A stretch of 64,000 bases of DNA from Stigmatella aurantiaca DW4/3-1. GTDB taxonomy: Bacteria > Myxococcota > Myxococcia > Myxococcales > Myxococcaceae. The stretch is taken from the NCBI RefSeq assembly GCF_000165485.1, contig NC_014623.1, forward strand, positions 8,388,893-8,452,892, in the 5' to 3' direction. The position numbers and the translations under genes were made by a program. Position 1 is the first letter of the stretch. Each line of letters opens with the position of its first letter. Positions 12,121 to 44,570 of the stretch are shown here, one piece after another. The notes beneath the pieces are model-generated. The model ran no database searches, was not told the origin of the DNA, and was given only the letters and a program-made list of their open reading frames with translations.

Positions 12121-13437
12121 TCAGCCCTGGGACATCCGCGCCCAGACCGCCGTGGCGGCCTCCCGGGCCTGGTCCGCCACCACCGAGGGGCTGACCGAGA
12201 GCGGCCGCCGCGCCCAGATGCGCCACGTGCCCTCCACCATCACCGCCTCCACATGCCGCGAGCCCAGGCCGTATGCCACGTGCCAGGCCAGGTTGCCGGC
12301 GTTCAGCGGCGTGGGGGGCAGGTAGTCCAACAGCAGCAGGTCCGCCGCGGCCCCCTCTCGCAGGGGCCCCACGGGAAAATCAAAGGATTGCGAGGCCAGG
12401 CGGTGGCCGTTGGCCAGGTAGCGCAGCACGTCGATGGGCTGCCCCGCCTCGCGCGAGCGCAGGTAGGCCGCCTGAGCCTCGGCGAAGACATCCGCCGCCA
12501 TGCCGTCCGTGCCCAAGGTGGCGCGCGCGCCGAACTTCAACGCCGGCGCATATCCCACCTCGAGCTGCTGGTTGGAGCGCGGGGTGTGCACCACCCACGT
12601 GCCGGTGGCGAGCAGCTGCGCCAACTCCGCCCACGCCAGGTGCCCCACGTGCGCAAGCTGGCTCTTGGGCGAGAGCAACCCCGCCTCCAGGAGCCGCGTC
12701 ACGGGCGGGGCGCCATGGCGCTCCACCGAGAGCTTCTCGTCCAGGGGATCCTCGGCCACCGGGACGTGCAGCCCCGCGCCCGTGGCGGCCAGCGCCTCCT
12801 GGATGCCCGCCAGCGCCTCCGGGCCCACCGTGAAGAGGGACGCGGCGCCCACCTGGCCCCGGAAGCGCCCCTTGGCCTTGCGGGCAAACCCCACGGTCTC
12901 CTCCAGCCCCTCCTCGCGCCCCAGGGCCCCCTTGCGGTCCGTCACCGCGTAGGAGAGCACCCCGCGCACCCCCACCTCGTGGAGCCCGCGCGCCACCCGC
13001 ACCAGCGAGCCGGCAATGGCCTTGGGCGAGGAGTGGAAATCAAAGAGGGTGGTGGTGCCGCACTGCAACGCCTCCAGGCCGCCCACGCACGCGGCCACCT
13101 GCACCGCGTCGCCGTCCAGGGCCGCCTCGTAGCGCCAGCGCCCGTTCTCCAGCGCCTCCTGGTAATTGCCCGCCCGGGGCTCGGCCAGGCCCCGGGCCAG
13201 GGAGGCGTGCAGCCGGTGGTGTGCGCTCACCAGCCCCGGAAAGATGAGCTTGCCCGACAGGGCCACCACCTCGTCGTCGGGCCGGGGCGCGATGTCCGGC
13301 GCCCGCTCGACGATGCGCTCGCCCTCGATGCGCAGGTCCACCCGCTCGACGAGGGCAGGCTCCAGTTCGACGACATGTCCACCCTTGAGGACGGTGCCCA
13401 ACGTCCCTCCACCGTGAAGCCGCACGAGAAGCGCCAC
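12121..13437 (-). CDS. SsnA-like amidohydrolase with altered metal site
   Basis: 438-residue amidohydrolase, full length for the SsnA/chlorohydrolase branch. Long stretches match my recollection of E. coli SsnA: PGLVSAHHRLHASLARG, GLHVPVAEDPLD, WVVHTPRSN, LGTDGMAADVF. The usual HxH metal motif reads H73-H-R75, and the His expected in the GLHxHxAED strand is Pro226, while H263 and D311 are kept. Two of the normal metal ligands are therefore absent, so hydrolase activity is doubtful. It ends 12 bp from the peroxiredoxin start, probably in one transcript. Confidence 0.82.
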   Translation of the reverse strand: MALLVRLHGGGTLGTVLKGGHVVELEPALVERVDLRIEGERIVERAPDIAPRPDDEVVALSGKLIFPGLVSAHHRLHASLARGLAEPRAGNYQEALENGRWRYEAALDGDAVQVAACVGGLEALQCGTTTLFDFHSSPKAIAGSLVRVARGLHEVGVRGVLSYAVTDRKGALGREEGLEETVGFARKAKGRFRGQVGAASLFTVGPEALAGIQEALAATGAGLHVPVAEDPLDEKLSVERHGAPPVTRLLEAGLLSPKSQLAHVGHLAWAELAQLLATGTWVVHTPRSNQQLEVGYAPALKFGARATLGTDGMAADVFAEAQAAYLRSREAGQPIDVLRYLANGHRLASQSFDFPVGPLREGAAADLLLLDYLPPTPLNAGNLAWHVAYGLGSRHVEAVMVEGTWRIWARRPLSVSPSVVADQAREAATAVWARMSQG

Positions 13438-19225: not shown

Positions 19226-20470
19226 TCAGCAGATAGAAGAGCCGCCTCGCACGCCAGCAGCACCCGTTTCACCCTGCTCCTCTTCAGGCACTCGATGGCC
19301 GGTCACGGCCCCCGCTTGCCCAACCGTGCACGCTCCACCTTGTTCACCCTCCGCCGTTCCATCCAGCAGGAGGTGTCCGCCCTCTCTGTCCAGGCCCGAG
19401 CCAACCGGAGCTTGGGACGGTCGCTCCTGGTGGCCAGGCGGAACCCTTCGCGACGCTTCCTGGCCATGAGGCACTTCCGCGCCGGGCGTCCCGTCTCCCA
19501 GAGAGGTGTGGGAGTCAGAGGAGGGAGCCTCGGGTGGGGGGCCCCCCGTGGGCGGCCGTTGGCTCAAACCTGTAGGGCAAGCAGACTGGATGGGACGATT
19601 CGCCTCCGACAGCCTCTCCGTGGCGTCCTCAGGCTCTGAGGTGGGGTGAGAGGGGGCTGTGTCTGCGCAGAGTGGGGGCTGTGACGACCCCTTTGGCTCC
19701 TGCGGGGAGGCTGTGTCTGCGCAGAGTGGGGGCAGTAACGACCCTCTATTAGGCTCCTGCGGGGGTGGGAGGCCTGCGAGCAGGTGCGCATCGCTCGCCT
19801 GGAGCAAGGCGGGCAGTTCCTGGCGCAGGGGCTGCGCATCCTTGGCTGCCAGGGCGTGCAGCGCACAGAGTGCCCACTGCCGAGTGGCCTGCGCATTCAG
19901 GTGCGGCCTCAGCCGCCGGGCCATTCCTCGGTACGAGCGCTCCAGCGACTGCAGCAGCAGTGCCTGTCCGGGACGCTCCACCGCGCGGGCTGCTTGCCTC
20001 AGCAACGCGAACTCTAGCTCCGCCCACCTGCCGGGGTTTTCGCCCCAGCGGGCCTCCTCCGCCAACTCGAAGCACAGGCCTCCTAGCGTGTCCAAGTCCC
20101 TGGCAGAGGCCTGCTGACAACACGCCGCCAGCAGTTCCACAGCCGTCTCTCGCTTGAGGGCCAGAAAGCCTTCCAGCAGCTTGCGTCTCTCCGGTTGAGC
20201 GGCGCCCGGGCCCTCCAGCACCACTCCCAGGTTCTCCAGGGTCACCGCCCCCTCCAAGGGGAGGGCTCGGCTGCGGCGGCCCGGGTGCTGCTCAATCAAT
20301 GCTCTGGCGGCCAGTCGCTTCAGTGCTTCACGGACGGTGCTGCGTGAGAGGCCGTAGTGCTTGGCCAGCGAGTTTTCCGAGGGAAGAAAGCCGTCCTGGG
20401 GCAGCAGGCCTTGCGAAATCATCCGCTCCAGGTCCTGCTCCACTCGTCCGACGAGCCCCGACCATTCCAT
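19226..20470 (-). CDS. GntR/FadR-like regulator with aberrant tail
   Basis: Transcription regulator. An N-terminal winged helix of the GntR type is seen in LPSENSLAKHYGLSRSTVREALKRLAAR, followed by an all-helical FadR/FCD-like ligand domain to about residue 250. Start at MEWSGLV, preceded by AAGGAGGGGGG. From about residue 255 to the stop at 414 the protein turns into Pro/Ser/Gly-rich, low-complexity sequence that includes a tandem repeat. This last third does not look like a natural domain and may be read-through into a decayed gene. No obvious target operon is adjacent. Confidence 0.75.
   Translation of the reverse strand: MEWSGLVGRVEQDLERMISQGLLPQDGFLPSENSLAKHYGLSRSTVREALKRLAARALIEQHPGRRSRALPLEGAVTLENLGVVLEGPGAAQPERRKLLEGFLALKRETAVELLAACCQQASARDLDTLGGLCFELAEEARWGENPGRWAELEFALLRQAARAVERPGQALLLQSLERSYRGMARRLRPHLNAQATRQWALCALHALAAKDAQPLRQELPALLQASDAHLLAGLPPPQEPNRGSLLPPLCADTASPQEPKGSSQPPLCADTAPSHPTSEPEDATERLSEANRPIQSACPTGLSQRPPTGGPPPEAPSSDSHTSLGDGTPGAEVPHGQEASRRVPPGHQERPSQAPVGSGLDREGGHLLLDGTAEGEQGGACTVGQAGAVTGHRVPEEEQGETGAAGVRGGSSIC
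19655..19765. repeat. Two-copy tandem repeat of about 54-57 bp in the regulator tail
   Basis: Units start at 19655 and 19709, both opening GGCTGTGTCTGCGCAGAGTG and both ending in GGCTCCTGCGGG. The second is about 3 bp longer. Encoded on the minus strand as PPLCADTA with flanking residues, so the repeat stays in frame. Confidence 0.85.
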
Positions 20471-20560
20471 GTCCCGCCCCCCTCCTTGTTTCAGGCAGGG
20501 CCATCTCACCACCTAGGGCTGACAGAGTGGGAAGGGGGTTCATCCTCGATGCCCGAGCGC

Positions 20561-21475
20561 TTAGAGCCCTCCGCGCAGCTCCATTTGCATCCGGAAGGCG
20601 CCCTCCTGCTCCCGCAGGAGTGCCACCAGCCGACCGAGGTGGAAGCCGCGCACGGGGGCCTCGGGATCCGGAAAGCCCGGGGGCAGACGCCAGTCCGGAG
20701 GCAGCAGCCGCCCCAGGGCAATGGGCCGCTCCCGCCGCAGCTCGCCCACCTCCGCGTCCGAGAGCTCCCGGAGGGCACTCCAGGGCAGTACCTGGCGCCC
20801 GTGCAGTCCCATGCGCCGCCCAGGCCCCGGGTCCTCCCAGGGGCCGATGGCCGTGCGGTGCAGCCGGGCCAGGTGAGCCCCACATCCAAGGATCCTCCCC
20901 AGCTCTCGGGCCAGGGAGCGCACATAGAATCCCCCCCGGCACACCAGCTCCAGCTGGCTGGAGCGCGGCAGTTCGTGGGAGCGCCAACGCGCCTCGTGCA
21001 GGTAGACGCGCGAGGGCGGCAACACCACCTCCTCGCCCCGGTGGGCCTTGCGGTAGGCGGGCTCTCCGCCGAGCTTCTTCGCGCTGGTGGCTGGCGGCAC
21101 CTGATCCTGCCAGCCCCGGAAGCCCGCGAGCGCCGCCTCCAGCGCCCCGGGCGTCAGGGCCGAGGGATCTCCCGCGTGCACCACCCGGCCCAACAAGTCC
21201 CCGGTGTCCGTCTCCGTGCCCCAGATGACCTGCGCCACATAGTGCTTCGGCACGGCGTGCAGCAGGTCCATGAGCCGCGTGGCCTGGCCCACCAGCAGCA
21301 GCAGCAACCCTTCGGCGAACGGATCCAGCGTCCCGCCATGGCACACGGGCACCCGCTTGCCCGGGCGCGCGGCCTCGAGCTCGGCCATCGCGGCGCGCAC
21401 CGAGGAGAAGCTCGTCTCCCCCAGCGGCTTGTGGACGAGGTGAATGCCGGGGGCCAGCGGAGGGGCGTCCCTCAA
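20561..21475 (-). CDS. truB: tRNA pseudouridine-55 synthase TruB
   Basis: 304-residue TruB, which makes pseudouridine at position 55 of the tRNA T loop. The catalytic Asp lies in GGTLDPFAEGLL. Other family segments are KHYVAQVIWGTETDTGD and RGGFYVRSLARELG. The start is taken as TTG at 21475 because it overlaps the kinase stop (TTGA) and gives the family's usual N-terminus (PGIHLVHKPLGETSF). Longer readings would run into the kinase gene. Coupling of truB to a kinase gene, and not to infB/rbfA, is unusual. Confidence 0.93.
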   Translation of the reverse strand: MRDAPPLAPGIHLVHKPLGETSFSSVRAAMAELEAARPGKRVPVCHGGTLDPFAEGLLLLLVGQATRLMDLLHAVPKHYVAQVIWGTETDTGDLLGRVVHAGDPSALTPGALEAALAGFRGWQDQVPPATSAKKLGGEPAYRKAHRGEEVVLPPSRVYLHEARWRSHELPRSSQLELVCRGGFYVRSLARELGRILGCGAHLARLHRTAIGPWEDPGPGRRMGLHGRQVLPWSALRELSDAEVGELRRERPIALGRLLPPDWRLPPGFPDPEAPVRGFHLGRLVALLREQEGAFRMQMELRGGL

Positions 21476-24282: not shown

Positions 24283-24753
24283 TCACTTCGCCGCGTCGTC
24301 CATGGCCCGCTGGAGCGTGGCGCCCAGCGAGTTCACCTCCCGCTGGTGCATCTCGAGGATCTCGGACACGACCGTGCAGGGACCTTGCCAGGAGTCTCCG
24401 TGGCGGTTCTCGCCCCGGATCTCGCAGCACTGGGCGTCCATGCTGACGGTGATGGTGTTGCCAGCAGAAGCCATGGGCGCCACGGTGGTGGTGAAGCGGC
24501 GCATCAGGGAGCCCTCCTTTTGGGTGGGCGTGTAGCAAACGCCCGTGGACTCCCAGCGCGTGTGGAGAATGCCCAGTTCCGGCTCGACGCTCTCGGGCGG
24601 ATGGCCCGCGGAGATCAGGGCCCGTACGAGCGTATCGATGGGCGACTCGGGCCCCTGGGGAGCCTTGAACGTGTAGGGCCGCTGGGGCTGCGTGCAGCCC
24701 ACCAGGGACAGGGCCAGGACAACACCGAGACGAACGGGGGAAGCGAATGACAC
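24283..24753 (-). CDS. Predicted lipoprotein, unknown function
   Basis: 156-residue lipoprotein starting at GTG 24753 behind GGAGAGG, with lipobox SLVGC. The mature part has paired cysteines (CYTPTQ and QCCEIRG) and no domain that I recognise. It faces the cyclase gene with only 9 bp between the stop codons. Confidence 0.75.
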   Translation of the reverse strand: MSFASPVRLGVVLALSLVGCTQPQRPYTFKAPQGPESPIDTLVRALISAGHPPESVEPELGILHTRWESTGVCYTPTQKEGSLMRRFTTTVAPMASAGNTITVSMDAQCCEIRGENRHGDSWQGPCTVVSEILEMHQREVNSLGATLQRAMDDAAK

Positions 24754-24800
24754 GGAACCTCTCCAAGCCGGGAAGGAAGACTCCGTGTTACCACAACGCC

Positions 24801-25427
24801 ATGTACACCCCTCCCCACTACAAAGAAGAGCGCCCCGAGGTGCTTCAAGCCTTGATCCACCAGCACAGCTTTGGGCTGTTGATCAGCTCGGGGCCCCACG
24901 GGGTGGAGGCCACCCACGTGCCCTTCCTCCTGGAGGTGGAAGGACCCGGGCCGGGACGGCTCCTGGCGCACCTGTCCCGGGCCAACCCCCAGTGGCGGCA
25001 CCTGGAGGAAGCGGGCGAGGTGCTGGCCATCTTCTCCGGGCCCCACGCCTACATCTCCGCGTCCTGGTACACGGAACGCACGGACGTGCCCACGTGGAAC
25101 TATGTGGCGGTCCATGCCTCCGGGCGCGCCCGCGTGATGGAGGGGGACCGGTTGCGCAGCCTGCTCGATCGGATGTCGCGGCGTTACGAACAGACCAGCG
25201 CCGCGCCCTGGTCCCTCGAGGACGTGCCCGAAGCCTCTCTCCAGGCGATGACCAAGGGAATCGTGGGCATCGAAATCGACATCACCCGGCTGCAAGGCAC
25301 CCAGAAGCTGAGCCAGAACCGCTCGGCGGAGGATCAGCAACGCGTCATTCACGAATTGAAGGCGCGAGGCAGCCAGGACGACCTCGCGCTCGCGGCCCTC
25401 ATGGAGCACCCTTCAAGGCCGCGCTGA
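24801..25427 (+). CDS. FMN-binding PaiB-like protein
   Basis: 208-residue protein of the PaiB/FMN-binding split-barrel family. Diagnostic segments are MYTPPHYKEERPEVL at the start, ATHVPFLLE, HLSRANPQW, FSGPHAYISASWY and PTWNYVAVHASG. PaiB was described as a transcriptional regulator in Bacillus, but the fold is a flavin-dependent oxidoreductase type, so the biochemical role is open. The start at MYTPP is the one conserved in the family. Confidence 0.92.
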   Translation: MYTPPHYKEERPEVLQALIHQHSFGLLISSGPHGVEATHVPFLLEVEGPGPGRLLAHLSRANPQWRHLEEAGEVLAIFSGPHAYISASWYTERTDVPTWNYVAVHASGRARVMEGDRLRSLLDRMSRRYEQTSAAPWSLEDVPEASLQAMTKGIVGIEIDITRLQGTQKLSQNRSAEDQQRVIHELKARGSQDDLALAALMEHPSRPR

Positions 25428-25549
25428 AGCCACGCCCAACCTGAGAAGTAGCGAAAAGCCCTCGATCCGTCAACCATCCTCCCCGGACACCGGGCCATGC
25501 GCGGGGCGTGGCACGCGAGTCCCCCCTTGATTGACGGAGCGCCCGGCAT

Positions 25550-25583
25550 ACCTTGTCACCCGGTGAAACCCTATCGACAAGGT
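25550..25583. promoter_or_regulatory. Inverted repeat upstream of the deazaguanine cassette
   Basis: ACCTTGTC (25550-25557) and GACAAGGT (25576-25583), a perfect 8-bp inverted repeat with an 18-bp spacer, 134 bp before the first cassette gene. It could be an operator or a hairpin ending upstream transcription. The rest of 25428-25716 shows no gene. Confidence 0.4.
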
Positions 25584-25716
25584 TGGGTCATACATGCTCT
25601 ACCTCACAGGTCACCCCACGGCCCCATCCCAAGCGAGGACTCTCCCCGTTGAAGGCCCCCCGCGGACTCCCTGACCTCATCACGAGCAGATGCCTCGTGA
25701 GGGCTCTGCGCCCCCT

Positions 25717-26673
25717 ATGCCTGCCGACCTCCACATCATCGCGAGTTGTACAGACCGCAAGCGGATGACGGTGCCGGACACCCTCCGGTTGCGGAGCGTG
25801 ACCGCCTCGGGCATCGAGGCCCGCGCTCGCCAATGGTGGGCCCGCCTGGAGCAGCCTGCCGCTCCCCCCGTGCGCGCGCTGGAACTCTACGCGGGAGACC
25901 ATTGGCGCATCATCCGGGAACTCCCGGCGATGGCCACCGCGGCGGGATTTTCCCCCAAGCTCTGGATCGCCTCCGCGGGCTACGGGCTCATTCCAGCCAA
26001 TGCCGTGATCCAGCCGTACTCCGCCACCTTCGCGCCGGGGAAGCCGGACTCCGTCACCATGGACCATGCAGGCGTGCCCTCCCGGGCCCAGCACCAACGT
26101 TGGTGGGATGCCATGGCGCGCATGGCCCGCGCCCCCTCGAGCACGCCGCGGCAGGTGCAGCAGCTCGCCGAGTCTGGACGCAATCCCATCCTCCTCGTCG
26201 TTGCGTCACCGTCCTATGTCGCCGCGCTCGAGCAGGATCTCGTGCTCGCGGCCCAGGCACTTCGTCATCCTGAGCGGCTCATCATCATCTCGGCGCCCTC
26301 CCGCATCGCTCGAGGCACGCTGGCCCCGCATTGGGTGCCGTCGAGCGCCCACCTCCAGGCACAACTGGGAGGGGCGCGGCTGTCCCTGCATGCCCGCGTC
26401 GCGAGGAAGGCCCTCCAGCGCGCGAGACACGGGATTCTGGACGCCCGCGAACTCCGAGGGTATTACGGGCGGCTCATCCAATGTAGCCATCCTCTCGTCC
26501 GCTATGAGCGGACCCCTATGACAGATGACGACGTACGGGCTTTCATCGCCAGGGCGCTGCGCGTGGAGCCGCTCTCCTGCAGCGCCACCCTACGGAAGTT
26601 GCGCGACAGTGGCCATGCGTGCGAGCAGCAGCGATTCAAGCGAATCTTCCTCGAACTCCGGGAATGCACATGA
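25717..26673 (+). CDS. YaaA/DUF328-like protein, candidate DpdC-type partner
   Basis: 318-residue protein. An SCTDRK motif follows the first strand (residues 10-15), then ELYAG (56-60), SAGYGL (86-91) and QPYSATF (99-105). This order (S/C..K, Y.G, S..YG.L, .PY...) matches the YaaA/DUF328/DUF6884 superfamily, whose members bind nucleic acid or handle 7-deazaguanine bases. From memory, DpdC of the Dpd system is a DUF328-type protein that converts preQ0 in DNA to the amido form. Assignment to that role here is inference from fold motifs plus linkage to dpdA and dpdB. An upstream ATG at 25690 is also possible. Confidence 0.7.
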   Translation: MPADLHIIASCTDRKRMTVPDTLRLRSVTASGIEARARQWWARLEQPAAPPVRALELYAGDHWRIIRELPAMATAAGFSPKLWIASAGYGLIPANAVIQPYSATFAPGKPDSVTMDHAGVPSRAQHQRWWDAMARMARAPSSTPRQVQQLAESGRNPILLVVASPSYVAALEQDLVLAAQALRHPERLIIISAPSRIARGTLAPHWVPSSAHLQAQLGGARLSLHARVARKALQRARHGILDARELRGYYGRLIQCSHPLVRYERTPMTDDDVRAFIARALRVEPLSCSATLRKLRDSGHACEQQRFKRIFLELRECT

Positions 26674-26765
26674 GGAGAGCCGCGCCCGCCCTCCGCTCAC
26701 ATGAGGGCCCTCTCCTGCCATCCCTCGTTGCTCGGAAACACCCTTCCACCTGGCGGGGACGCCAC

Positions 26766-28073
26766 GTGAAATTCTTTCTTCCTGACAGTCAGGATCTCGT
26801 CGACCCCTCCTTTGATTTCGAGAATGAGCAGCGATCAAAGGACCGGCGGCGCCAGCGCCACGACCTCTATGCCCACGAGGTGTTTTCCCAGCCTGCCTTT
26901 GACGGATTCTTGGTCTCGAAAGGCATGGTGGATGGATTCGGGGCACTGGGCAGCCGCTATACGCTCTCGCAGCGCCTGCGCTTGTCACAGATGGGCGCCC
27001 CGGAGTTCTTCCGGGTGGAGCGTGCCCCTCATCCCCTCCAGATCATGGGGGACTGTGGCGCCTTCACCTATGTGAAGGAACAAAAGCCTCCCTACAGCGT
27101 CGATGACGTGATCGACTTCTACGCCACCTCCCGGTTCGACTATGGCGTCTCCCTGGACCACGTCATCCTCGACTTCATCCCAGAGGCAGACGCTCCGGGC
27201 GCGGGCCCCCGGGCAGTCCCCGCCGCCATCCGCCATCGGCAGGAATTGACCCTCCAGTACGCCACCGAGTTTCTCCATCAGCACAGGCTGGGCCGCCATG
27301 CCTTCAAGCCCTTGGGCGTCGCCCAGGGCTGGAGCCCCCAGTCCTACGCCACCAGCGTCAAACGCTTGCAGAAAATGGGTTATGACTACATCGCGCTGGG
27401 AGGAATGGTCCCCCTCAAGACCCAGGACATTCTCCGGTGCTTGCAGGCCATCCAGGACCAGAGGGCCCACGGCACCCGCCTGCACCTGCTGGGCGTGACG
27501 CGCACCGAGCACCTCGAGGAGTTCTACCGCCTGGGGGTCGCCTCGTTCGACAGCACCTCACCCCTTCGCCAGGCCTTCAAGGACGCCCACGACAACTACT
27601 ATTTCAATGGGCAAACCTACACCGCCATCCGCATCCCCCAGGTGGAAGGCAATACGCGCTTGCAGCAACGGATTGCCTCGGGGCAGATCTCACAAAACCA
27701 GGCACGCAAGCTGGAGACCGCCTGCCTTCAGGCCATGCGGTTGTTCGATGCGGGCCGGCGCTCCCTCTCCAAGGTCATCGAGGTCCTCCTCGAGTACGAA
27801 GACCTCTATGCCCACGACGTGAAACGCAGTCATGCCAAAGACTACGAGCGGACCCTCACGGATGCGCCTTGGCGCCAGTGCGCCTGCGACATCTGCAAGC
27901 ACCTCAAATACCATGTCATCATCTTCCGGGGAGCAGAGCGCAACCGGCGCAGAGGCTTTCACAACATCTGGAGCCTCTACCACCATATGCGCGGCTCCGG
28001 CACGGGCATTCCTGAGTTCACCGTGGGGCAACACGCTGCTGGCTTGAAGGAACGAGCATGCCGGACGAATTGA
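26766..28073 (+). CDS. dpdA: DpdA-type DNA-guanine transglycosylase (TGT paralogue)
   Basis: 435-residue paralogue of tRNA-guanine transglycosylase that would exchange guanine in DNA for preQ0. TGT landmarks are kept: GDCGAF (95-100; TGT has DSGGF), SLDH (129-132), GVAQG (184-188), IALGGMVP (209-216), FDSTSPLR (261-268) with the probable nucleophile Asp262, and a zinc site of C372, C374, C377 and H399. The N-terminus KFFLPDSQDLVDPSFDFENE is typical of DpdA as I recall, which favours the GTG start at 26766 over ATGs at 26664/26670 that overlap the previous gene. Its last 16 bp overlap dpdB. Confidence 0.88.
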   Translation: MKFFLPDSQDLVDPSFDFENEQRSKDRRRQRHDLYAHEVFSQPAFDGFLVSKGMVDGFGALGSRYTLSQRLRLSQMGAPEFFRVERAPHPLQIMGDCGAFTYVKEQKPPYSVDDVIDFYATSRFDYGVSLDHVILDFIPEADAPGAGPRAVPAAIRHRQELTLQYATEFLHQHRLGRHAFKPLGVAQGWSPQSYATSVKRLQKMGYDYIALGGMVPLKTQDILRCLQAIQDQRAHGTRLHLLGVTRTEHLEEFYRLGVASFDSTSPLRQAFKDAHDNYYFNGQTYTAIRIPQVEGNTRLQQRIASGQISQNQARKLETACLQAMRLFDAGRRSLSKVIEVLLEYEDLYAHDVKRSHAKDYERTLTDAPWRQCACDICKHLKYHVIIFRGAERNRRRGFHNIWSLYHHMRGSGTGIPEFTVGQHAAGLKERACRTN

Positions 28074-29173
28074 GGCTTCCCGCCCTGGAAGTACACCAGT
28101 CCAAGGGACGCAAGCTGTACTCCTTCGCCGTGGACGGCAAACTGTTGCAGGATTTCGTCACCGTCTCGCGCGTGCGCAGGGACGACGAACAGGAGCTGTC
28201 AGGCTACCAGCGGCCCGAGGCGCTTGCGCACATCCAGGAGATCCGCGCCTACCTGGAAGCCCCTTCTCCCATGATCCCCAACTCCATCGTCCTGGCCTTC
28301 GACTCACGGGTCCGGTTCGAGCCAGACAAGGGCAAGACCGCGTTCCCCTATGTGCGAACGGGGACGGTCGTGATTCCCCTGGCCAAAGACATCTCCGATT
28401 CAGACAAGCCGGGCTTCGTCGTGGATGGGCAGCAACGCCTGGCGGCCATCCGGGATGCGGACATCAGCCGTTTCCCCATCTTCGTGACGGCTTTCATTAC
28501 CAACGATGTCCGGCAACAGACCGAGCAGTTCATCCTCGTCAACTCGACGAAACCCCTCCCCAAGGGGCTCATCTACGAGCTCCTGCCCAGCACGGACGCG
28601 CAACTTCCCTCGCCCCTGCACCGGCGCAAGCTCCCGGCGCTCCTGATGGAGCGGCTGAACCTGGATGCGGACTCTCCCCTGGCGGGCCGCATCCGCACGA
28701 CCACCAATCCCACGGGCACCATCAAGGACAACTCCATCCTGAAAATGATTGAGAACAGCCTGAGCGATGGCGTCCTCTTTCATTTCCTGCGTCCGCAGAC
28801 GGCCCTTGGCGCGGATGTGGCCCCCATGCTGGAAATCCTGCACCACTTCTGGGCCGCCGTGGCCCGCGTCTTCCATGCCGCCTGGGGACTGCCGCCGAAG
28901 CAGTCCCGGCTCATGCACGGCGCGGGAATCATCAGCCTGGGCCACGTCATGGATGCCATCAGCTACCGGCTGCGCAACGTCTCCATCCCCACGGAAGCCC
29001 AGTACATCGAGGAGCTGATGCCCCTCAAGGCGATCACCCATTGGACCGGGGGGTCCTGGAACTTCGGCAATGGGGAGCGCCGGAAATGGAACAACCTGCA
29101 AAACACGCCCGGGGACATCGAGCTGCTCTCCAAATACCTCTGCGCCCCGTACCAGAAGCAAGCCAGCAAGTGA
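28058..29173 (+). CDS. dpdB: DpdB-type DGQHR-domain protein
   Basis: 371-residue protein of the DGQHR/DndB-ParB-like superfamily; the signature is VDGQQRLAAI (residues 122-131), with FILVNSTKPLPKGLI further on. In the characterised Dpd system DpdB is an ATP-hydrolysing partner that DpdA needs to insert preQ0 into DNA. Here it starts inside dpdA (16-bp overlap) behind GAAGGAACG, so the two are coupled. The distance to other DGQHR proteins (DndB) cannot be judged by eye, but the partner gene makes DpdB the best label. Confidence 0.87.
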   Translation: MPDELRLPALEVHQSKGRKLYSFAVDGKLLQDFVTVSRVRRDDEQELSGYQRPEALAHIQEIRAYLEAPSPMIPNSIVLAFDSRVRFEPDKGKTAFPYVRTGTVVIPLAKDISDSDKPGFVVDGQQRLAAIRDADISRFPIFVTAFITNDVRQQTEQFILVNSTKPLPKGLIYELLPSTDAQLPSPLHRRKLPALLMERLNLDADSPLAGRIRTTTNPTGTIKDNSILKMIENSLSDGVLFHFLRPQTALGADVAPMLEILHHFWAAVARVFHAAWGLPPKQSRLMHGAGIISLGHVMDAISYRLRNVSIPTEAQYIEELMPLKAITHWTGGSWNFGNGERRKWNNLQNTPGDIELLSKYLCAPYQKQASK

Positions 29174-29228
29174 GGTCTGTTTCCAAACGTACATCAGGAC
29201 ATTTTCCCGTCACGCGCATTCTTCGTGG

Positions 29229-29248: not shown

Positions 29249-29262
29249 TATGAGTGAGCGCC

Positions 29263-30255
29263 ATGACCCTGCTCAAGTGCTTCCTTCTCACGGGTGCCCT
29301 GTTGGGCACATCCCCGGCCGCCGCGCAAAACAGCGCGCCTGCTCCTTCGTTCAAGACCGCCCAGGACGTTGAGGCCTGGAAAGAGAAGAACCGGAACTGG
29401 AACCGCTGGGGGCCGGAGGATCAGCTCGGCGCCGTGAATCTCATCACCCCCGCCAAGCGGAAGGAGGCCGCGCGGCTCGTCCGTGAAGGCGTCTCCATCT
29501 CCCTGGCGCACCCGCTGGAGACCCAGAAGGCCGCGGATGTCTCCTCGCCCCTCGGCCACAAGATGCTCTTCACGGGAGAGTCCCCGGAGTCCCTGTACAG
29601 CGCCGATGCCCTGTCCCTCGAGTTCCATGGCTTCACGCACACGCACCTCGATGCGCTCTGCCACGTCTTCGACCACGGCAAGATGTACAACGGCTACGAG
29701 CAGAAGCTCGTCACCGCGAACGGGTGCGCGAAGCTCGCCGTGACCACGCTCAAGGATGGCATCCTGACGCGCGGGGTGCTCATCGACATCCCGGCCCTCC
29801 AGGGCGTCCCCTACCTGGAGCCAGGGACGCCGATCCACGCCAAGGATCTGGAAGCCTGGGAGAAGAAGACGAAGGTCCGCGTGTCGAGCGGTGACGCCGT
29901 CATCGTCCGCACGGGCCGCTGGGCCCGCCGCGCCGCCGTGGGGCCCTGGGACGTCTCGCAGCACTCCGCGGGGCTGCACGCCTCCACCGCCGACTGGTTC
30001 AAGAAGCGCGGCGTCGCCCTCGTCGCCACGGATACGGGCCTGGATGTGCTTCCCTCGGGCGTGGAGAATGACCCGTTTCCGACGCACGTGATGTTGATCA
30101 ACGCCCTGGGCATTTCCGTCCTCGACAATGCCGACACCGAGGCGTTGAGCAAGGCCATCGCCGAGCGCAAGCGCTACGACTTCCTCCTCAGCATCGCCCC
30201 GCTGATCGTCGAGGGCGGAACGGGCTCTCCCGTCAACCCCATCGCGGTCTTCTGA
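29263..30255 (+). CDS. Exported cyclase/kynurenine-formamidase-like hydrolase
   Basis: 330-residue member of the cyclase superfamily (PF04199 type), metal-dependent hydrolases related to bacterial kynurenine formamidase. A Sec signal peptide ends near AAAQN. Metal-binding His/Asp residues are in FHGFTHTHLDALCH; the later VATDTGLD and the late HVMLINALGI also fit. Export argues against tryptophan breakdown and for an extracytoplasmic substrate. ATG 29263 is preferred to a GTG 9 bp upstream. Not obviously linked to the DNA-modification cassette. Confidence 0.85.
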   Translation: MTLLKCFLLTGALLGTSPAAAQNSAPAPSFKTAQDVEAWKEKNRNWNRWGPEDQLGAVNLITPAKRKEAARLVREGVSISLAHPLETQKAADVSSPLGHKMLFTGESPESLYSADALSLEFHGFTHTHLDALCHVFDHGKMYNGYEQKLVTANGCAKLAVTTLKDGILTRGVLIDIPALQGVPYLEPGTPIHAKDLEAWEKKTKVRVSSGDAVIVRTGRWARRAAVGPWDVSQHSAGLHASTADWFKKRGVALVATDTGLDVLPSGVENDPFPTHVMLINALGISVLDNADTEALSKAIAERKRYDFLLSIAPLIVEGGTGSPVNPIAVF

Positions 30256-36287: not shown

Positions 36288-36992
36288 TCACTCACGCTCC
36301 AACCGAGCGATCCTGCTCAAGTTCCTGAACTCAGCCACGAAGTCCAGGTATCGACGAATGGCCTGCACGTGGTCCCCATAACAATCCCGTAGGAATTTCG
36401 CGGGCCACCCCTCCCCAGGCATCTCCTTCTTCACATCCCGGAGCCATTCGAAGAAGTGGCCATATTCCTCATCAGCGAATCCATTGGCCAGCATACAAGC
36501 GTGACAGCCTTCAACGAAGGTTTCGAAGCACTCTGCACTCGCTTCACTGAGGGGCACAGCAAGCTGCCCCTGAATCATTTCCTGACGCACCCGGCACAGC
36601 ACATCGAGCGTCCCAGCCTGACTCCTCGCTGGAGTCTCAGCGTCTCCGGTCTGAAGCGCTGCCGAGACTTTCTCCATGGAGGCGAACTCGGCCACGAGGT
36701 CCAGATACTTCCGAATGGCCTGCTCGTGGTCGCCGTGACAATCCAATCGATATTTTGCTGGCCATTCCTTTCCTGAAGCTTCCTGCTTGATGTCCCGAAG
36801 CCACTCCATGAAGCGCTCGTATTCATCGCTCTCGGACCCGTTGGCTTGAAGGCATGCATGGTATCCTTCGATGAAGCAGGCAAGCCGCTCAACACGGGTC
36901 TCACCTATATACATTCGTAACCGCCTTCGCTGCATGTCGGAGCGAATGCGGAGGAGATAAGAGAGTGTCTCAAGATGCATTCTAGGGCCCAT
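36288..36992 (-). CDS. Two-repeat protein of unknown family (copy A)
   Basis: 234-residue protein built from two related units. Each has the pattern F.EG.HAC..ANG, EY..F.EWLRD.K.E, W PAK, DC.GDH.QAIR.YLD.VAEF. Unit 1 spans roughly residues 35-110 and unit 2 roughly 145-230. Predicted mostly helical, no signal peptide, no membrane segment. I do not recognise the family. Start at MGPRMHLETL because the same start is kept in the paralogue at 42.9 kb. It is divergent from a membrane Ser/Thr kinase, 111 bp away, and that pairing is also repeated, so the proteins may work with the kinase (inference). Confidence 0.78.
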   Translation of the reverse strand: MGPRMHLETLSYLLRIRSDMQRRRLRMYIGETRVERLACFIEGYHACLQANGSESDEYERFMEWLRDIKQEASGKEWPAKYRLDCHGDHEQAIRKYLDLVAEFASMEKVSAALQTGDAETPARSQAGTLDVLCRVRQEMIQGQLAVPLSEASAECFETFVEGCHACMLANGFADEEYGHFFEWLRDVKKEMPGEGWPAKFLRDCYGDHVQAIRRYLDFVAEFRNLSRIARLERE

Positions 36993-37103
36993 CGAGCACG
37001 CCAGCGCTCTCTCCTCGAAGCCAAGAGAAATGGAACATCGCCGATGGAATACGGCTTCATACGACCCCTGAGGTATGGTGTCCATCTCTTACCTGAGGGA
37101 CCC

Positions 37104-38567
37104 ATGCCGAGCTCCCAAGCCCCCGAATTGAAACCCGCGCTCCTGCCTCCTGGCACCGTGGTGGGCTCCTGGCGTGTGGCCGCCTGGGCGGGCCGGGGCG
37201 TCCACGGCACCGTCTACCGGGCAGTCCCGGTCACCGATGAGCATGCCGAGCCCACGGCCCTCAAGCTCGCCCTGCTCCCCAGAGACCCTCGCTTCGCGCG
37301 TGAGGTGGAACTGCTCTCCAGGGTCCGGCATGCCTGTATCCCGCGCCTGAGAGACTCCGGCATCTGGCAGCACCCGGGGGGTACGCTTCACCCCTTCCTC
37401 GTGATGGACTGGGTGGATGGAACACCTTTGTATGAATGGGCCCAGCAGCACACCCCTTCCTCCCAGCACGTTCTTCGGCTGCTCGCCCAATTGGCGCGCG
37501 CCCTCCAGGCCGTGCATGCCCAGGGCTGCCTTCACCGCGACGTCAAGGGCGACAACATCCTGGTGCGCCACTCCGATGGCAGCGCCCTGCTCACCGACTT
37601 TGGCTCGGGCCGCTTCCCAGATGCCGCCACCCTCACCCCTGGCACCCTTCCTCCTGGCACCCCGGCCTACCGCTCCCCGGAGGCCTGTCTGTTCGAACTC
37701 CAGTGCTTCCGGGACCCCCGGGCCCATTACGCCGCACAGCCGGCCGATGACCTCTATTCCCTGGGCGTCACCGCCTACCGGCTCGTCACGGGCGAATACC
37801 CTGAGTTTGGAGACCCGAGCCGGGATGCCTCCGGCACCTGGCACCTGGAGGGTTTTGTCTCGGCCGCCCCGCTTTCCCTCAACCCCTCCCTGGATCCGCA
37901 GCTCAACGCCTTGATCCTTCGCATGCTCTCCATGCGCCCCGAGCAACGTGGCACCGCAGCGGAACTGGCCAGCGCGCTGGAGCAGGCAGCGCAGGGCTCC
38001 AGCCCTGAGAGCACTCCTCCTTGCCTCGTCCCAGAGCCGCCGCGCACCGCCAAGACACCGTCGACCGAGGTATCCACTCCCACGCCGGATGCCCTCGTGC
38101 GTGTCACGCCTCCAGGACGAGCTCAGCCGTGGCAAAGCGTGTTCGCGGCGGCAGCAGCGCTCGGGGTGTGGATCATCTGGGTCTACGAGAGCATGCCCCT
38201 GAACGCCCCAGAGCTGCCCACCGCCGTCAGGCACGAGGCAGACGCGGCCGGTTTGGAGGATGGGGGGACCGCAGGGCTCGGCGATGAGGCCGTCGCGTCC
38301 TCCGTGGCCCCCTCCGTCCCCTCCGTGTCAGGAGAGCCAGCCGAAAGCCCCCTTCCAGAGCCAAAGCCAGGCCAAACACGGCCCAATGCAAAGGGGAAAT
38401 GCGCTCACCCACGGCAGGTTCCCCTCAATGGCGGCTGTTGGGTCAAGCTTTCGGTGGATCGCGAGGGATGCGAGGCGCTCTCTGGCACCCTGATTGAGGG
38501 AACTTGCTACGTGCCTATCGCCACCCATGAGCGCCAGCCCACATCCCACCCCGCGTGCACTCCATGA
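37104..38567 (+). CDS. Membrane Ser/Thr kinase of the duplicated module (copy A)
   Basis: 487-residue Hanks-type kinase. Glycine loop GRGVHGTVY (30-38), ATP Lys54, HRDVKGDN (144-151), DFG (165-167), SPE (191-193): all core residues present. A Pro/Thr-rich linker leads to a single transmembrane helix (about residues 343-360, SVFAAAAALGVWIIWVYE) and an external tail with four cysteines (KCAHPRQ, GGCWVK, REGCEA, GTCYVP) that could form a small disulfide-bonded sensor knob. Start behind GAGGGA. Compared with copy B the kinase domain is nearly identical, while the linker and tail differ. Confidence 0.93.
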   Translation: MPSSQAPELKPALLPPGTVVGSWRVAAWAGRGVHGTVYRAVPVTDEHAEPTALKLALLPRDPRFAREVELLSRVRHACIPRLRDSGIWQHPGGTLHPFLVMDWVDGTPLYEWAQQHTPSSQHVLRLLAQLARALQAVHAQGCLHRDVKGDNILVRHSDGSALLTDFGSGRFPDAATLTPGTLPPGTPAYRSPEACLFELQCFRDPRAHYAAQPADDLYSLGVTAYRLVTGEYPEFGDPSRDASGTWHLEGFVSAAPLSLNPSLDPQLNALILRMLSMRPEQRGTAAELASALEQAAQGSSPESTPPCLVPEPPRTAKTPSTEVSTPTPDALVRVTPPGRAQPWQSVFAAAAALGVWIIWVYESMPLNAPELPTAVRHEADAAGLEDGGTAGLGDEAVASSVAPSVPSVSGEPAESPLPEPKPGQTRPNAKGKCAHPRQVPLNGGCWVKLSVDREGCEALSGTLIEGTCYVPIATHERQPTSHPACTP

Positions 38568-42237: not shown

Positions 42238-42417
42238 CAGCGCGACCCGAAGCGTATCGAGTAGCAGAAACAGGCGGTTTTGACGCCCCTGGTGCGCAGC
42301 AGGGATCGCCGAAAGTGCAGGCTTCAAACAGGCCAGACGAAGAGTGGCCAGCATGTCAGCACAGGAAGGACGGACCTTGTGGCGGTACCAAGGGCGAATC
42401 ACGAGCTTAGGCCCAAA
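42238..42417 (-). pseudogene. Probable transposase C-terminal relic
   Basis: A minus-strand frame reads GPKLVIRPWYRHKVRPSCAD, then MLATLRLACLKPALSAIP and HQGRQNRLFLLLDTLRVA. The WYRHK..PS.ADMLATLR pattern resembles the tail of transposases, from memory. No start, no catalytic part and no ends are visible, so this is a fragment at most. The left border of the duplicated module copy B falls exactly here. The remaining 42052-42237 shows nothing. Confidence 0.4.
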
Positions 42418-42947
42418 AACTCGGCCACGAAGTCCAGGTATTGACGAACGGCCTGAGCATAGTCCCCATGACAATCTCTTAGGAATTTCGCAGGCCACCC
42501 CTCCCCAGGCATCTCCTGCTTCACATCGCGGAGCCATTCGAAGAAGCGGCCATACTCATCAAGCTGCCCCTGAATCAGTTCCTGATGCGCTTGCCACAGC
42601 ACACCGAGCGTCCCGGCACCACTGCCGCTTCCCGCCGCCGCCCTGGCGTCTCTGCCTTGAAGCGTTGCCGCCACGCCATTGATTTCGCCGAACTCGGCCA
42701 CGAGGTCCAGATACTTTTGAATGGCCTGCTCTTGATCACCGTGACACTCCAGCAGATATTTGGCTGGCCAGTCCTTCCCTGAAGCCTCCTGACCGTTGGC
42801 ACGAAGGCATGCCCGATATCCGTCCATGAAGCAGGAAAGCCGCTCGACACGAATGTCGCCAACATACATCCGCAACCGCCGCCGCTGCATGTCAGCGCGA
42901 ATGCGCAGGAGATAAGAGAGCGTCTCAAGATGCATTTCAGGACCCAT
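42399..42947 (-). CDS. Two-repeat protein of unknown family (copy B, shortened)
   Basis: 182-residue paralogue of the protein at 36.3-37.0 kb, with the same start (MGPEMHLETLSYLLRIR). Compared with copy A it lacks about 17 residues of unit 1 (the EY..FMEWLRDIK part) and about 29 residues between the units (including F.EGCHAC..ANG), both in frame. The C-terminus after YLDFVAEF is also replaced by LGLSS, at the junction with the transposase relic. So it has probably lost one complete repeat surface. Still open, so possibly expressed. Divergent from kinase copy B. Confidence 0.72.
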   Translation of the reverse strand: MGPEMHLETLSYLLRIRADMQRRRLRMYVGDIRVERLSCFMDGYRACLRANGQEASGKDWPAKYLLECHGDQEQAIQKYLDLVAEFGEINGVAATLQGRDARAAAGSGSGAGTLGVLWQAHQELIQGQLDEYGRFFEWLRDVKQEMPGEGWPAKFLRDCHGDYAQAVRQYLDFVAEFLGLSS

Positions 42948-43106
42948 CGCACTCGCCGGACCGAAGCTTGCGTCCCGTATGAGCCTCGCACAGCACGAGC
43001 GCGCCAGTTCAACCTCCTCGAAGCCAATAGAAATGGGGCATCACCGATGAGATGCGGCATCACACGACCCTTGAGGTAAAGTGTCTCTCTCCTACCTGAG
43101 GGACCC

Positions 43107-44570
43107 ATGCCGAGCTCCCGAGCCCCCGAATTGAACCCCGCGCTGCTGCCTCCTGGCACCGTGGTGGGCTCCTGGCGTGTGGCCGCCTGGGCGGGCCGGG
43201 GCGTCCACGGCACCGTCTACCGGGCAGTCCCGGTCACCGATGAGCATGCCGAGCCCACGGCCCTCAAGCTCGCCCTGCTCCCCAGAGACCCCCGCTTCGC
43301 GCGTGAGGTGGAACTGCTCTCCAGGGTCCGGCATGCCTGTATCCCGCGCCTGAGAGACTCCGGCATCTGGCAGCACCCGGGGGGTACGCTTCACCCCTTC
43401 TTCGTGATGGACTGGGTGGATGGAACGCCTTTGTATGAATGGGCCCAGCAGCACACCCCTTCCTCCCAGCACGTTCTTCGGCTGCTCGCCCAACTGGCGC
43501 GCGCCCTCCAGGCCGTGCATGCCCAGGGCTGCCTTCACCGCGACGTCAAGGGCGACAACATCCTGGTGCGCCACTCCGATGGCAGCGCCCTGCTCACCGA
43601 CTTTGGCTCGGGCCGCTTCCCAGATGCCGCCACCCTCACTCCTGGCACCCTGCCTCCTGGCACCCCGGCCTACCGCTCCCCGGAGGCCTGTCTGTTCGAA
43701 CTCCAGTTCTTCCGTGACCCCCGGGCCCATTACGCCGCACAGCCGGCCGATGACCTTTATGCCCTGGGAGTCACCGCCTACCGGCTCGTCACGGGCGAGT
43801 ACCCTGAGTTTGGAGACCCGATCCGGGATGCATCCGGCACCTGGCACCTGGAGGGCCTTGTCTCGGCCGCCCCCCTTGCCCTCAACCCCTCCCTGGATCC
43901 GCAGCTCAACGTCTTGATCCTTCGCATGCTCTCCATGCGCCCCGAGCAACGTGGCACCGCAGCGGAACTGGCCAGCGCGCTGGAACAGGCAGCGCAGGGC
44001 TCCAGTCCTGAGAGCACTCCTTCGTGCTTCGTCCCAGAGACGCTGCGCACCGCCAATACACAGTCGGCCGCGGCGTCCACTCCCACGCCGAGTGCCGCTG
44101 CGCATGTCAGACCTCCCACACGAGCCCAGCCGTGGCAAGGCTTGTTCGCGGCGGCAGCAGCGCTCGGGGTGTGGATCATCTGGGTCTGCGGGAGCACGCC
44201 CCTGAACTCTCCAGAGCTGCCCACGGCCGTCAGGCATGAGGCAGACGCGGCCGGTTTGGAAGATGGGGGGACCGCAGGGCTCGGCGATGAGGCCGTCGCG
44301 TCCTCCGTGGCACCCTCCGTTCCCTCCGTGTCAGGAGAACCGGCCGAGAGCCCCCTTCCAGAACCAATGCCAGGCCAAACACGGCCCAATGCGAAGGGGA
44401 AATGCGCTCACCCACGGCAGATTCCCCTCAACGGCGGCTGCTGGGTCAAGACTTCGGTGGATCGAGAAGGATGCGAGGTACTCACCGGCACAATGATTGA
44501 GGGCACATGCTACTTGCCCGTTCCTCTTCCTAAACGCCAGCCCACCTCCTATCCCGTGCATACTCCATAA
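43107..44570 (+). CDS. Membrane Ser/Thr kinase of the duplicated module (copy B)
   Basis: 487-residue kinase with the same motifs as copy A at the same positions (GRGVHGTVY, HRDVKGDN, DFG, SPE), the same transmembrane helix and the same four external cysteines (KCAHPRQ, GGCWVK, REGCEV, GTCYLP). By eye the first 330 residues differ from copy A at about nine positions, but the linker and tail differ at more than thirty. The ribosome binding site and start context are identical to copy A. The TAA stop is also the left flank of an inserted element. Confidence 0.93.
   Translation: MPSSRAPELNPALLPPGTVVGSWRVAAWAGRGVHGTVYRAVPVTDEHAEPTALKLALLPRDPRFAREVELLSRVRHACIPRLRDSGIWQHPGGTLHPFFVMDWVDGTPLYEWAQQHTPSSQHVLRLLAQLARALQAVHAQGCLHRDVKGDNILVRHSDGSALLTDFGSGRFPDAATLTPGTLPPGTPAYRSPEACLFELQFFRDPRAHYAAQPADDLYALGVTAYRLVTGEYPEFGDPIRDASGTWHLEGLVSAAPLALNPSLDPQLNVLILRMLSMRPEQRGTAAELASALEQAAQGSSPESTPSCFVPETLRTANTQSAAASTPTPSAAAHVRPPTRAQPWQGLFAAAAALGVWIIWVCGSTPLNSPELPTAVRHEADAAGLEDGGTAGLGDEAVASSVAPSVPSVSGEPAESPLPEPMPGQTRPNAKGKCAHPRQIPLNGGCWVKTSVDREGCEVLTGTMIEGTCYLPVPLPKRQPTSYPVHTP

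What the first reader, a model, noticed from the sequence alone, without database searches (positions are those of the whole stretch)
25717..29173. Compact dpdC-like/dpdA/dpdB cassette: a candidate 7-deazaguanine DNA modification system without its restriction genes
Three same-strand genes encode a YaaA/DUF328-like protein, a TGT paralogue with DpdA features (zinc Cys/His set, GDCGAF, FDSTSPLR) and a DGQHR protein. dpdB starts 16 bp inside dpdA. In the known Dpd island, DpdA and DpdB insert preQ0 into DNA and DpdC converts it, followed by many restriction genes (DpdD-K). Here the cassette is followed by an exported hydrolase and none of those genes is visible on either side. It could be modification-only (epigenetic or phage-evasive), or a new form with an unlinked defence part.
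Basis: partly seen in the sequence, partly recalled or inferred. Interest (0 to 1): 0.86.

Follow-up and report, generated by a model that had tools for sequence, protein, structure and literature searches.

The report
Dpd DNA-modification genes without restriction partners
A bacterium, probably a soil myxobacterium, carries three genes that very likely swap guanine in its DNA for a modified base; the matching DNA-cutting genes are not beside them, and only three of that set were found, millions of bases away, in an arrangement that is partly known already.

Summary
Window 25717-26673, 26766-28073 and 28058-29173 encode DpdC, DpdA and DpdB (PADLOC 353, 596, 495 bits). DpdA is not a tRNA TGT (100/100). 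No dpdD-K gene was found in the window. Two of six congeners (G096, G097) lack a 3.8-kb segment (25409-29210) holding just these genes. dN/dS against sister genome G095 is 0.09-0.18, and G095 has no DpdD, G or H match.

Restriction-less dpdABC islands, Archangium included, are already reported (PMC11888242): a new member of a known kind.

Two refinements. The window's genome keeps full-length dpdJ-K-D 5.09 Mb away, with no DpdG or DpdH match and no convincing DpdE or DpdF; an IS4/5 transposase fragment and a GntR gene stand where they would be. Archangium lansinium has a restriction operon 6.6 Mb from its dpdA. So 'no linked restriction genes' is not 'no restriction genes', though 10 of 16 dpdA genomes show none. 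Second, nine of 16 loci have the order dpdC-B2-A-B1; the window's clade lacks B2. No modified base was measured.

The parts
25409..29210 (+). 3802-base segment absent from the orthologous site of G096 and G097; it holds the whole cassette and no called integrase or transposase gene
   Evidence: G097: left flank matches to window 25408 and right flank from 29211 at adjoining bases; G096 the same except that the right match begins at 29256, about 42 bases on; gene calls
25717..26673 (+). dpdC (318 aa), related to DUF6884/YaaA; predicted to turn dPreQ0 in DNA into dADG
   Evidence: PADLOC DpdC 353 bits over 4-317; Pfam DUF6884 and YaaA only below cut-off
26766..28073 (+). dpdA (435 aa, GTG start), DNA-guanine transglycosylase
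   Evidence: NF041059 565 bits (cut-off 200); PDB 7ui4 (DNA-guanine transglycosylase) E 1e-124 over residues 1-409; tree
28058..29173 (+). dpdB (371 aa), DGQHR/DndB-family protein, groups with the downstream copy (B1) of relatives; overlaps dpdA by 16 bases
   Evidence: NF041060 476 bits (cut-off 300); PF14072 DndB 79 bits; B1/B2 tree
24747..25427 (+). flank, not part of the system: FMN-binding protein gene (the segment's left edge falls at its last codons)
   Evidence: PF04299 203 bits; present at the empty site
29263..30255 (+). flank, not part of the system: exported cyclase-family hydrolase
   Evidence: PF04199 73 bits; present at the empty site

Best explanation
This is a complete Dpd modification module. 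DpdA, helped by the DndB-like DpdB, replaces guanine in the host's DNA with preQ0; DpdC hydrolyses the nitrile to the amide, giving dADG. The module came into (or was lost from) lineages of this genus as a bare 3.8-kb three-gene segment and is kept by selection. In this genome it works without most of the Dpd restriction half: DpdG and DpdH have no match, DpdE and DpdF only helicase matches of the size found across the relatives, and a full-length J-K-D effector fragment survives at a distant locus beside a transposase fragment. Most likely effect: an orphan DNA modification that protects the chromosome against incoming or resident nucleases sensitive to 7-deazaguanine, comparable to orphan methyltransferases. 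Shown: gene identity, empty site, selection, gene content by these models. Inferred: chemistry (from studied Dpd systems) and protective role.
For: Family models far over cut-off for DpdA and DpdB and a strong PADLOC DpdC match; DpdA aligned over 409 residues with 7ui4, with both aspartate motifs present (their catalytic role is recalled). 23 DpdA and 5 TGT on two sides of one branch, 100/100. Empty site in G096 and G097, 2 of the 6 other genomes of the genus. dN/dS against G095: dpdC 0.18, dpdA 0.09, dpdB 0.18; four neighbouring genes 0.18, 0.21, 0.23, 0.39. G095 has no DpdD, G or H match, DpdK at most 24 bits, DpdJ at most 34 bits, DpdE and DpdF at the general level. QueC over cut-off in G000 at 8749721. 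Roles of DpdA, B and C as stated in PMC12839542 (passages) and PMC11888242 (section 37).
Against: No nucleoside was measured. QueD, QueE, FolE and a canonical Tgt were not searched for in G000, and DpdI was not searched genome-wide. J-K-D is full length, so 'modification only' is less certain for this genome than for G095. dN/dS covers only the time since the split from G095. The protective role is not tested, and nothing here shows which nuclease would be resisted.
Confidence: 0.72

Rival explanations
1. Split restriction-modification system: dpdCAB modifies, and the distant J-K-D unit (YprA-type helicase, PLD nuclease, DpdD) cuts unmodified DNA, with E-I dispensable or replaced by other proteins.
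For: DpdJ 1625 bits, DpdK 182, DpdD 527, all over cut-off and adjacent at C1:3316380-3323874. K keeps HxK; J keeps DEVH and GTGSGKT (the latter string is also in E. cloacae J, not in that exact form in G098 or G062 J). G000's J keeps 251 of 296 positions invariant in the other three; in the same test G098 keeps 251 of 290, E. cloacae 251 of 348, G062 251 of 376. DpdD is found in 3 of 16 genomes with DpdA over cut-off and 1 of 179 without (Fisher p 0.0017). A. lansinium (G062) has a restriction operon unlinked from its dpdA.
Against: DpdG and DpdH have no match in G000, and DpdE/F only general-level matches. Upstream of J stand an IS4/5-family transposase fragment and a gene 83% identical to the window's GntR gene (19226-20470) instead of E-I. 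None of the other five members of the compact clade has D, K or J over cut-off. The association rests on four genomes, three of one family, is not corrected for kinship, and one search scored only up to five candidates per genome. G171 has DpdF-to-D genes and no DpdA match, so the restriction half also occurs without dpdA.
Confidence: 0.22
2. J-K-D is a decaying remnant and dpdCAB a relic antidote, retained only because enough time has not passed.
For: Transposase fragment at the broken end; no restriction gene found in 10 of 16 genomes with dpdA.
Against: All three cassette genes are intact and under purifying selection since the split from G095, and the J, K and D frames are open over the full models.
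Confidence: 0.12
3. The TGT-like protein is a tRNA enzyme (queuosine or archaeosine pathway).
For: Pfam TGT hit of 32.3 bits, cut-off 26.3.
Against: NF041059 565 bits against TIGR00430 20.7 and TIGR00432 13.9; 23 DpdA and 5 TGT on two sides of one branch, 100/100 (no ArcTGT row); dpdB and dpdC as neighbours.
Confidence: 0.01

Closest known systems
Complete Dpd island (here: Enterobacter cloacae plasmid pPOL9A, NZ_CP086409.1)
   Same: Same order dpdC (annotated hypothetical)-dpdA-dpdB on one strand; DpdA 49%, DpdB 49%, DpdC 27% identical
   Different: There dpdD-K-J-(hypothetical)-H-G-F-E follows directly, convergent; here none of it is linked
Restriction-less dpd islands with dpdC reported by GATOR-GC (Aliarcobacter, Agrobacterium, Archangium; PMC11888242)
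   Same: dpdA-C without a restriction operon in the genomic window; Myxococcota included
   Different: That survey, as described, looks at windows around dpdAB; here whole genomes were searched with seven models, and unlinked restriction genes were found in two genomes (G000 and A. lansinium G062) whose fetched dpdA locus has none
Myxobacterial dpdC-B2-A-B1 operons (e.g. G064, G098, A. lansinium)
   Same: DpdA 57-70%, B1 55-67% identical to the window's
   Different: They carry a second DpdB paralogue upstream of dpdA, absent in the window's clade
BRC and BRIGADE systems (PMC12839542, PMC12458937; passages read)
   Same: Dpd-derived transglycosylase or 7-deazaguanine genes combined with other effectors
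   Different: BRC was reported without DpdB and DpdC; BRIGADE only from halophilic archaea; no such partners are next to the window's cassette

Membership tests
Dpd (7-deazapurine in DNA) modification module | DpdA over a curated cut-off and outside the tRNA TGT clade | tested here: met
   565 bits, cut-off 200; tree 100/100 (no ArcTGT row included)
Dpd (7-deazapurine in DNA) modification module | DpdB (DGQHR) adjacent | tested here: met
   476 bits, cut-off 300; DGQQR motif
Dpd (7-deazapurine in DNA) modification module | DpdC adjacent | tested here: met
   PADLOC DpdC 353 bits
Dpd (7-deazapurine in DNA) modification module | preQ0 synthesis in the genome | tested here: inconclusive
   QueC 195 bits, cut-off 150.3, at C1:8749721; QueD, QueE and FolE not searched
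Dpd (7-deazapurine in DNA) modification module | dPreQ0 or dADG in DNA | not testable with these tools
   needs LC-MS
Complete Dpd restriction-modification island | dpdD-K linked to dpdCAB | tested here: not met
   none in the 64-kb window
Complete Dpd restriction-modification island | dpdD-K all present somewhere in the genome | tested here: not met
   D, J, K over cut-off at 3.32 Mb; G and H no match; E (284 bits, cut-off 500) and F (210 bits, cut-off 550) only at the level of the relatives; I not searched
tRNA-guanine transglycosylase (Tgt / ArcTGT) | equivalog model over cut-off | tested here: not met
   TIGR00430 20.7 bits (cut-off 306.75), TIGR00432 13.9 bits (cut-off 350)

The most novel reading that the evidence does not exclude
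A split, stripped-down Dpd restriction-modification system: the modification genes and a three-gene effector (helicase J, nuclease K, D) work together from loci 5 Mb apart, and DpdE-I are not needed for restriction. If so, J-K-D is the minimal cutting unit of Dpd, and surveys limited to the neighbourhood of dpdA undercount working Dpd systems.
Probability: 0.2. Interest if true: 0.62.

Novelty: new member of a known kind. Interest (0 to 1): 0.42.

Why it matters
It gives a natural test of what Dpd modification does without restriction: one genus holds the cassette with no restriction gene detected (G095), the cassette with only J-K-D (the window's genome), a related cassette with two restriction gene sets (G098), and an empty site (G096, G097). 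It also warns that calling a Dpd island 'restriction-less' from its neighbourhood alone is unsafe: A. lansinium, of a genus named in that way, has an eight-gene restriction operon elsewhere in its genome (five of its genes score under the curated cut-offs, and DpdI is named by position).

Tried and rejected
One search used a wrongly recalled Pfam accession (PF20314 is DUF6610); it says nothing about the cassette. The NCBIfam accessions of DpdD, E, F, G, H, J and K were guessed from those of DpdA and DpdB; the tool's own names confirmed each. A first DpdA tree held two short mis-picked fragments (G172, G046b) and a haloarchaeal row; there the DpdA label needed 3 changes rather than 1. These three rows were dropped and the tree rebuilt. 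My first gene calls missed or cut dpdC, B2 or B1 in several loci; the layout used is the tblastn one. The DpdE and DpdF matches in G000 (284 and 210 bits) were rejected as Dpd genes: a DpdE match of 270-299 bits occurs in 13 of 16 genomes (169-178 in the other three, apart from true ones) and a DpdF match of 208-242 bits in all 16 (both match lists were cut by the tool). One of these DpdE matches, in G078 (299 bits over model 41-1041, another contig), may be a real DpdE-like protein. The 98-aa ORF upstream of dpdJ has no PADLOC match and is not claimed as DpdI. Considered and rejected: the cyclase gene as a fourth member (it is at the empty site); Agrobacterium vitis CG957 as a restriction-less example (its plasmid has dpdD-to-E about 10 kb beyond dpdB); Paenibacillus sp. 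37 as a J-K-D-only example (a helicase gene and dpdF follow). The search for related loci returned two relatives only and is no measure of abundance. No structure prediction was run: the family models and the 7ui4 alignment sufficed.
Full report
What is there. The window is C1:8388893-8452892 of a one-contig genome of 10.26 Mb, completeness 100. DpdC, DpdA and DpdB models of PADLOC match at 353, 596 and 495 bits; NCBIfam DpdA and DpdB at 565 and 476 bits against cut-offs of 200 and 300, while the tRNA TGT models TIGR00430 and TIGR00432 reach 20.7 and 13.9 bits. DpdA aligns over residues 1-409 with 7ui4, deposited as a DNA-guanine transglycosylase (E 1e-124). DpdC and DpdB have no solved relative by sequence at E 1.

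DpdA is not a tRNA enzyme. In a tree of 23 DpdA and 5 TGT sequences the two groups lie on either side of one branch with 100/100 support. Three rows of an earlier tree were left out, two as mis-picked fragments and one as a very long branch. No archaeal ArcTGT was included.

The cassette is a unit. In G096 and G097, of the same genus, the left flank matches up to window 25408 and the right flank resumes at 29211 (G097, adjoining bases) or 29256 (G096, about 42 bases on), so roughly 25409-29210 is missing there. The segment holds dpdC-A-B, 308 bases upstream and 37 downstream, and no called mobility gene. A search of 60 bases at each end found no shared direct repeat of 6 bases or more and one inverted hexamer. 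Gain here or loss there cannot be told apart: in G100 the two flanks lie about 166 kb apart, G099 shows only short flank-like matches, and G098's dpd locus matches the window over dpdA and dpdB only. GC3 of the three genes is 0.80, 0.80 and 0.85 against a mean of 0.87 (sd 0.07) for 57 called window genes over 300 bases: at most mildly low.

It is under selection. Against G095 my Nei-Gojobori dN/dS values are 0.18 (dpdC), 0.09 (dpdA) and 0.18 (dpdB); four neighbouring genes give 0.18, 0.21, 0.23 and 0.39.

Restriction genes. Nothing linked: tblastn of DpdD-K from three sources against the window gave one weak DpdJ hit. Whole-genome searches of the 16 genomes with DpdA over cut-off (16 of 195 in the phylum search, 14 of them in the window's family) used models of DpdH, K, J, F, E, G and D; DpdI was not searched. 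In G000, D (527), J (1625) and K (182 bits) are over cut-off, side by side at 3316380-3323874 on the minus strand, and are DpdD, DpdJ and DpdK in PADLOC too (the DpdD model PDLC02835 gives 1770 bits over 754 aa, so a near-identical protein was probably among PADLOC's own Dpd sequences, which is my inference). DpdG and DpdH have no match in G000; DpdE and DpdF reach 284 and 210 bits, the level of the relatives. The distance from dpdJ to dpdC is 5,090,735 bases. G098 and G062 have eight genes in the order E-F-G-H-I-J-K-D at one place away from dpdA (I is named by position). In G098 all but G (75 bits, cut-off 80) of the seven searched are over cut-off; in G062 J and F are, while D, E, G, H and K are below theirs. 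G098 also has a divergent second E, F, G, H, J set beside its dpdA. G064 and G042 have linked sets and G078 a linked DpdJ-like protein. The other 10 of 16 (G095, G061, G063, G066, G101, G120, G126, G136, G139, G046) have no D, G or H match, DpdK matches of at most 27 bits, DpdJ matches of at most 54 bits, and E and F at the general level; G139 is 86% complete and its dpdA contig only 8.3 kb. Two linked helicase-like hits, in G126 (DpdE, 112 aa) and G101 (DpdF, 341 aa), are taken as generic.

The J-K-D fragment. All three frames are open. K keeps the HxK motif, J the DEVH and GTGSGKT motifs; J retains 251 of 296 positions invariant in three other DpdJ, while those three retain 251 of 290, 348 and 376 in the same test. 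Where E-I would stand there is an IS4/5-family transposase fragment (PF13340, 65 bits, 137 aa) and a GntR-family gene 83% identical over 379 aa to window 19226-20470. Synteny with G095 (92% over 18.2 kb) ends at 3314162, 2.2 kb from dpdD. DpdD occurs in 4 of 195 genomes: 3 of 16 with DpdA over cut-off and 1 of 179 without (G171; Fisher p 0.0017, not corrected for kinship; up to five candidates scored per genome). G171 holds DpdF, H, J, K and D (G and I by position) without any DpdA match, so the restriction half can stand without dpdA, which counts against a strict need for the pair.

A second DpdB. In 9 of 16 myxobacterial loci, and in a Verrucomicrobia MAG, two rhizobial plasmids and one phage contig, dpdA is flanked by two dpdB genes, C-B2-A-B1 (no dpdC hit in the 9.3 kb taken of the phage contig). 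All 13 B2 form one clade (100/100) and the window's DpdB groups with B1. The six compact C-A-B cassettes (G000, G095, G061, G063, G066, G139) form one DpdA clade (97/95), which fits a single loss of B2; the DpdB tree does not support this, since B1 of G062 and G064 fall among the six. In G139 the contig begins within dpdC, but dpdC adjoins dpdA. G046 is divergent, with only a partial dpdC hit and no dpdB found in 20 kb.

Mechanism. From studied systems as stated in PMC12839542 (passages) and PMC11888242 (section 37): DpdA with DpdB puts preQ0 into DNA, and DpdC turns it into ADG. PMC12707154 (passages) calls dpdCAB the well-characterised modifying component and says the restriction activity was not further explored; PMC5567051 (passages) reports over 1,000-fold restriction of unmodified plasmid by the S. 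Montevideo cluster and names DpdK as PLD-family endonuclease and DpdJ as helicase. preQ0 here would come from the cell's own pathway: QueC is over cut-off 332 kb away, whereas several relatives carry queC, E or D beside dpd. The protective role is my inference; that 7-deazaguanine bases in phage DNA hinder many restriction enzymes is in the abstracts of PMC6884629 and PMC5567051. Thiaville 2016, Yuan 2018, Gedara 2023 and the 2024 review are not held, so whether they describe unlinked arrangements is unknown to me.

Known or new. PMC11888242 states that islands lacking the restriction operon but with dpdC occur in, for example, Aliarcobacter, Agrobacterium and Archangium, that Myxococcota (n=6) have reduced restriction content with some genes retained, and that dpdB has many extra copies. 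The cassette is therefore a new member of a known kind. I saw no description of the split arrangement over distant loci in the listings of searches or in the passages read; that is a limited look.

Noticed in passing
G000:C1:8370676-8372818 (L073:10677-12819), about 16 kb before the window: QueC-like protein (PF06508, 87 bits) next to a PfkB/nucleoside 2-deoxyribosyltransferase protein and a 120-aa protein without a Pfam or PADLOC match; the neighbourhood fits 'Cluster 4' of the QueC superfamily in PMC13329287 (passages).
   Followed up: partly
G171:C66 (L091): DpdF, H, J, K and D matches (G and I by position) in a 98%-complete genome with no DpdA match: restriction half without the modification half.
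   Followed up: partly
window 19226-20470 and G000:C1:3324551-3325924: Two genes of one GntR-family kind (83% identical over 379 aa); one stands, with an IS4/5 transposase fragment, where dpdE-I are missing upstream of dpdJ. Possibly a repeated or mobile element.
   Followed up: partly
window 36288-38567 and 42399-44570: Two similar pairs: a low-GC3 ORF without a family over cut-off (208 and 178 aa) divergent from a Ser/Thr protein kinase gene (487 aa each); an IS66-family transposase gene follows at 44679-46145. The two small ORFs were not compared.
   Followed up: no
L105 (MT835580.1, phage-labelled contig from human faeces): Carries B2-dpdA-B1-queE-queD-queC of the bacterial kind, grouping with the two rhizobial plasmids in the DpdA tree.
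   Followed up: no
L108 (Nostoc sp. C057 plasmid p057_I): dpdE-to-J and dpdK-D are separated by six annotated genes; no DpdA match on that plasmid record at E 1e-5.
   Followed up: no
L002 (Verrucomicrobia MAG contig), 12454-12828 and 19629-21197: DpdK-like (31% over 126 aa) and DpdH-like (24% over 580 aa) tblastn hits near a dpdC-B2-A-B1 operon, although PMC11888242 found no restriction gene in its one Verrucomicrobiota window.
   Followed up: no
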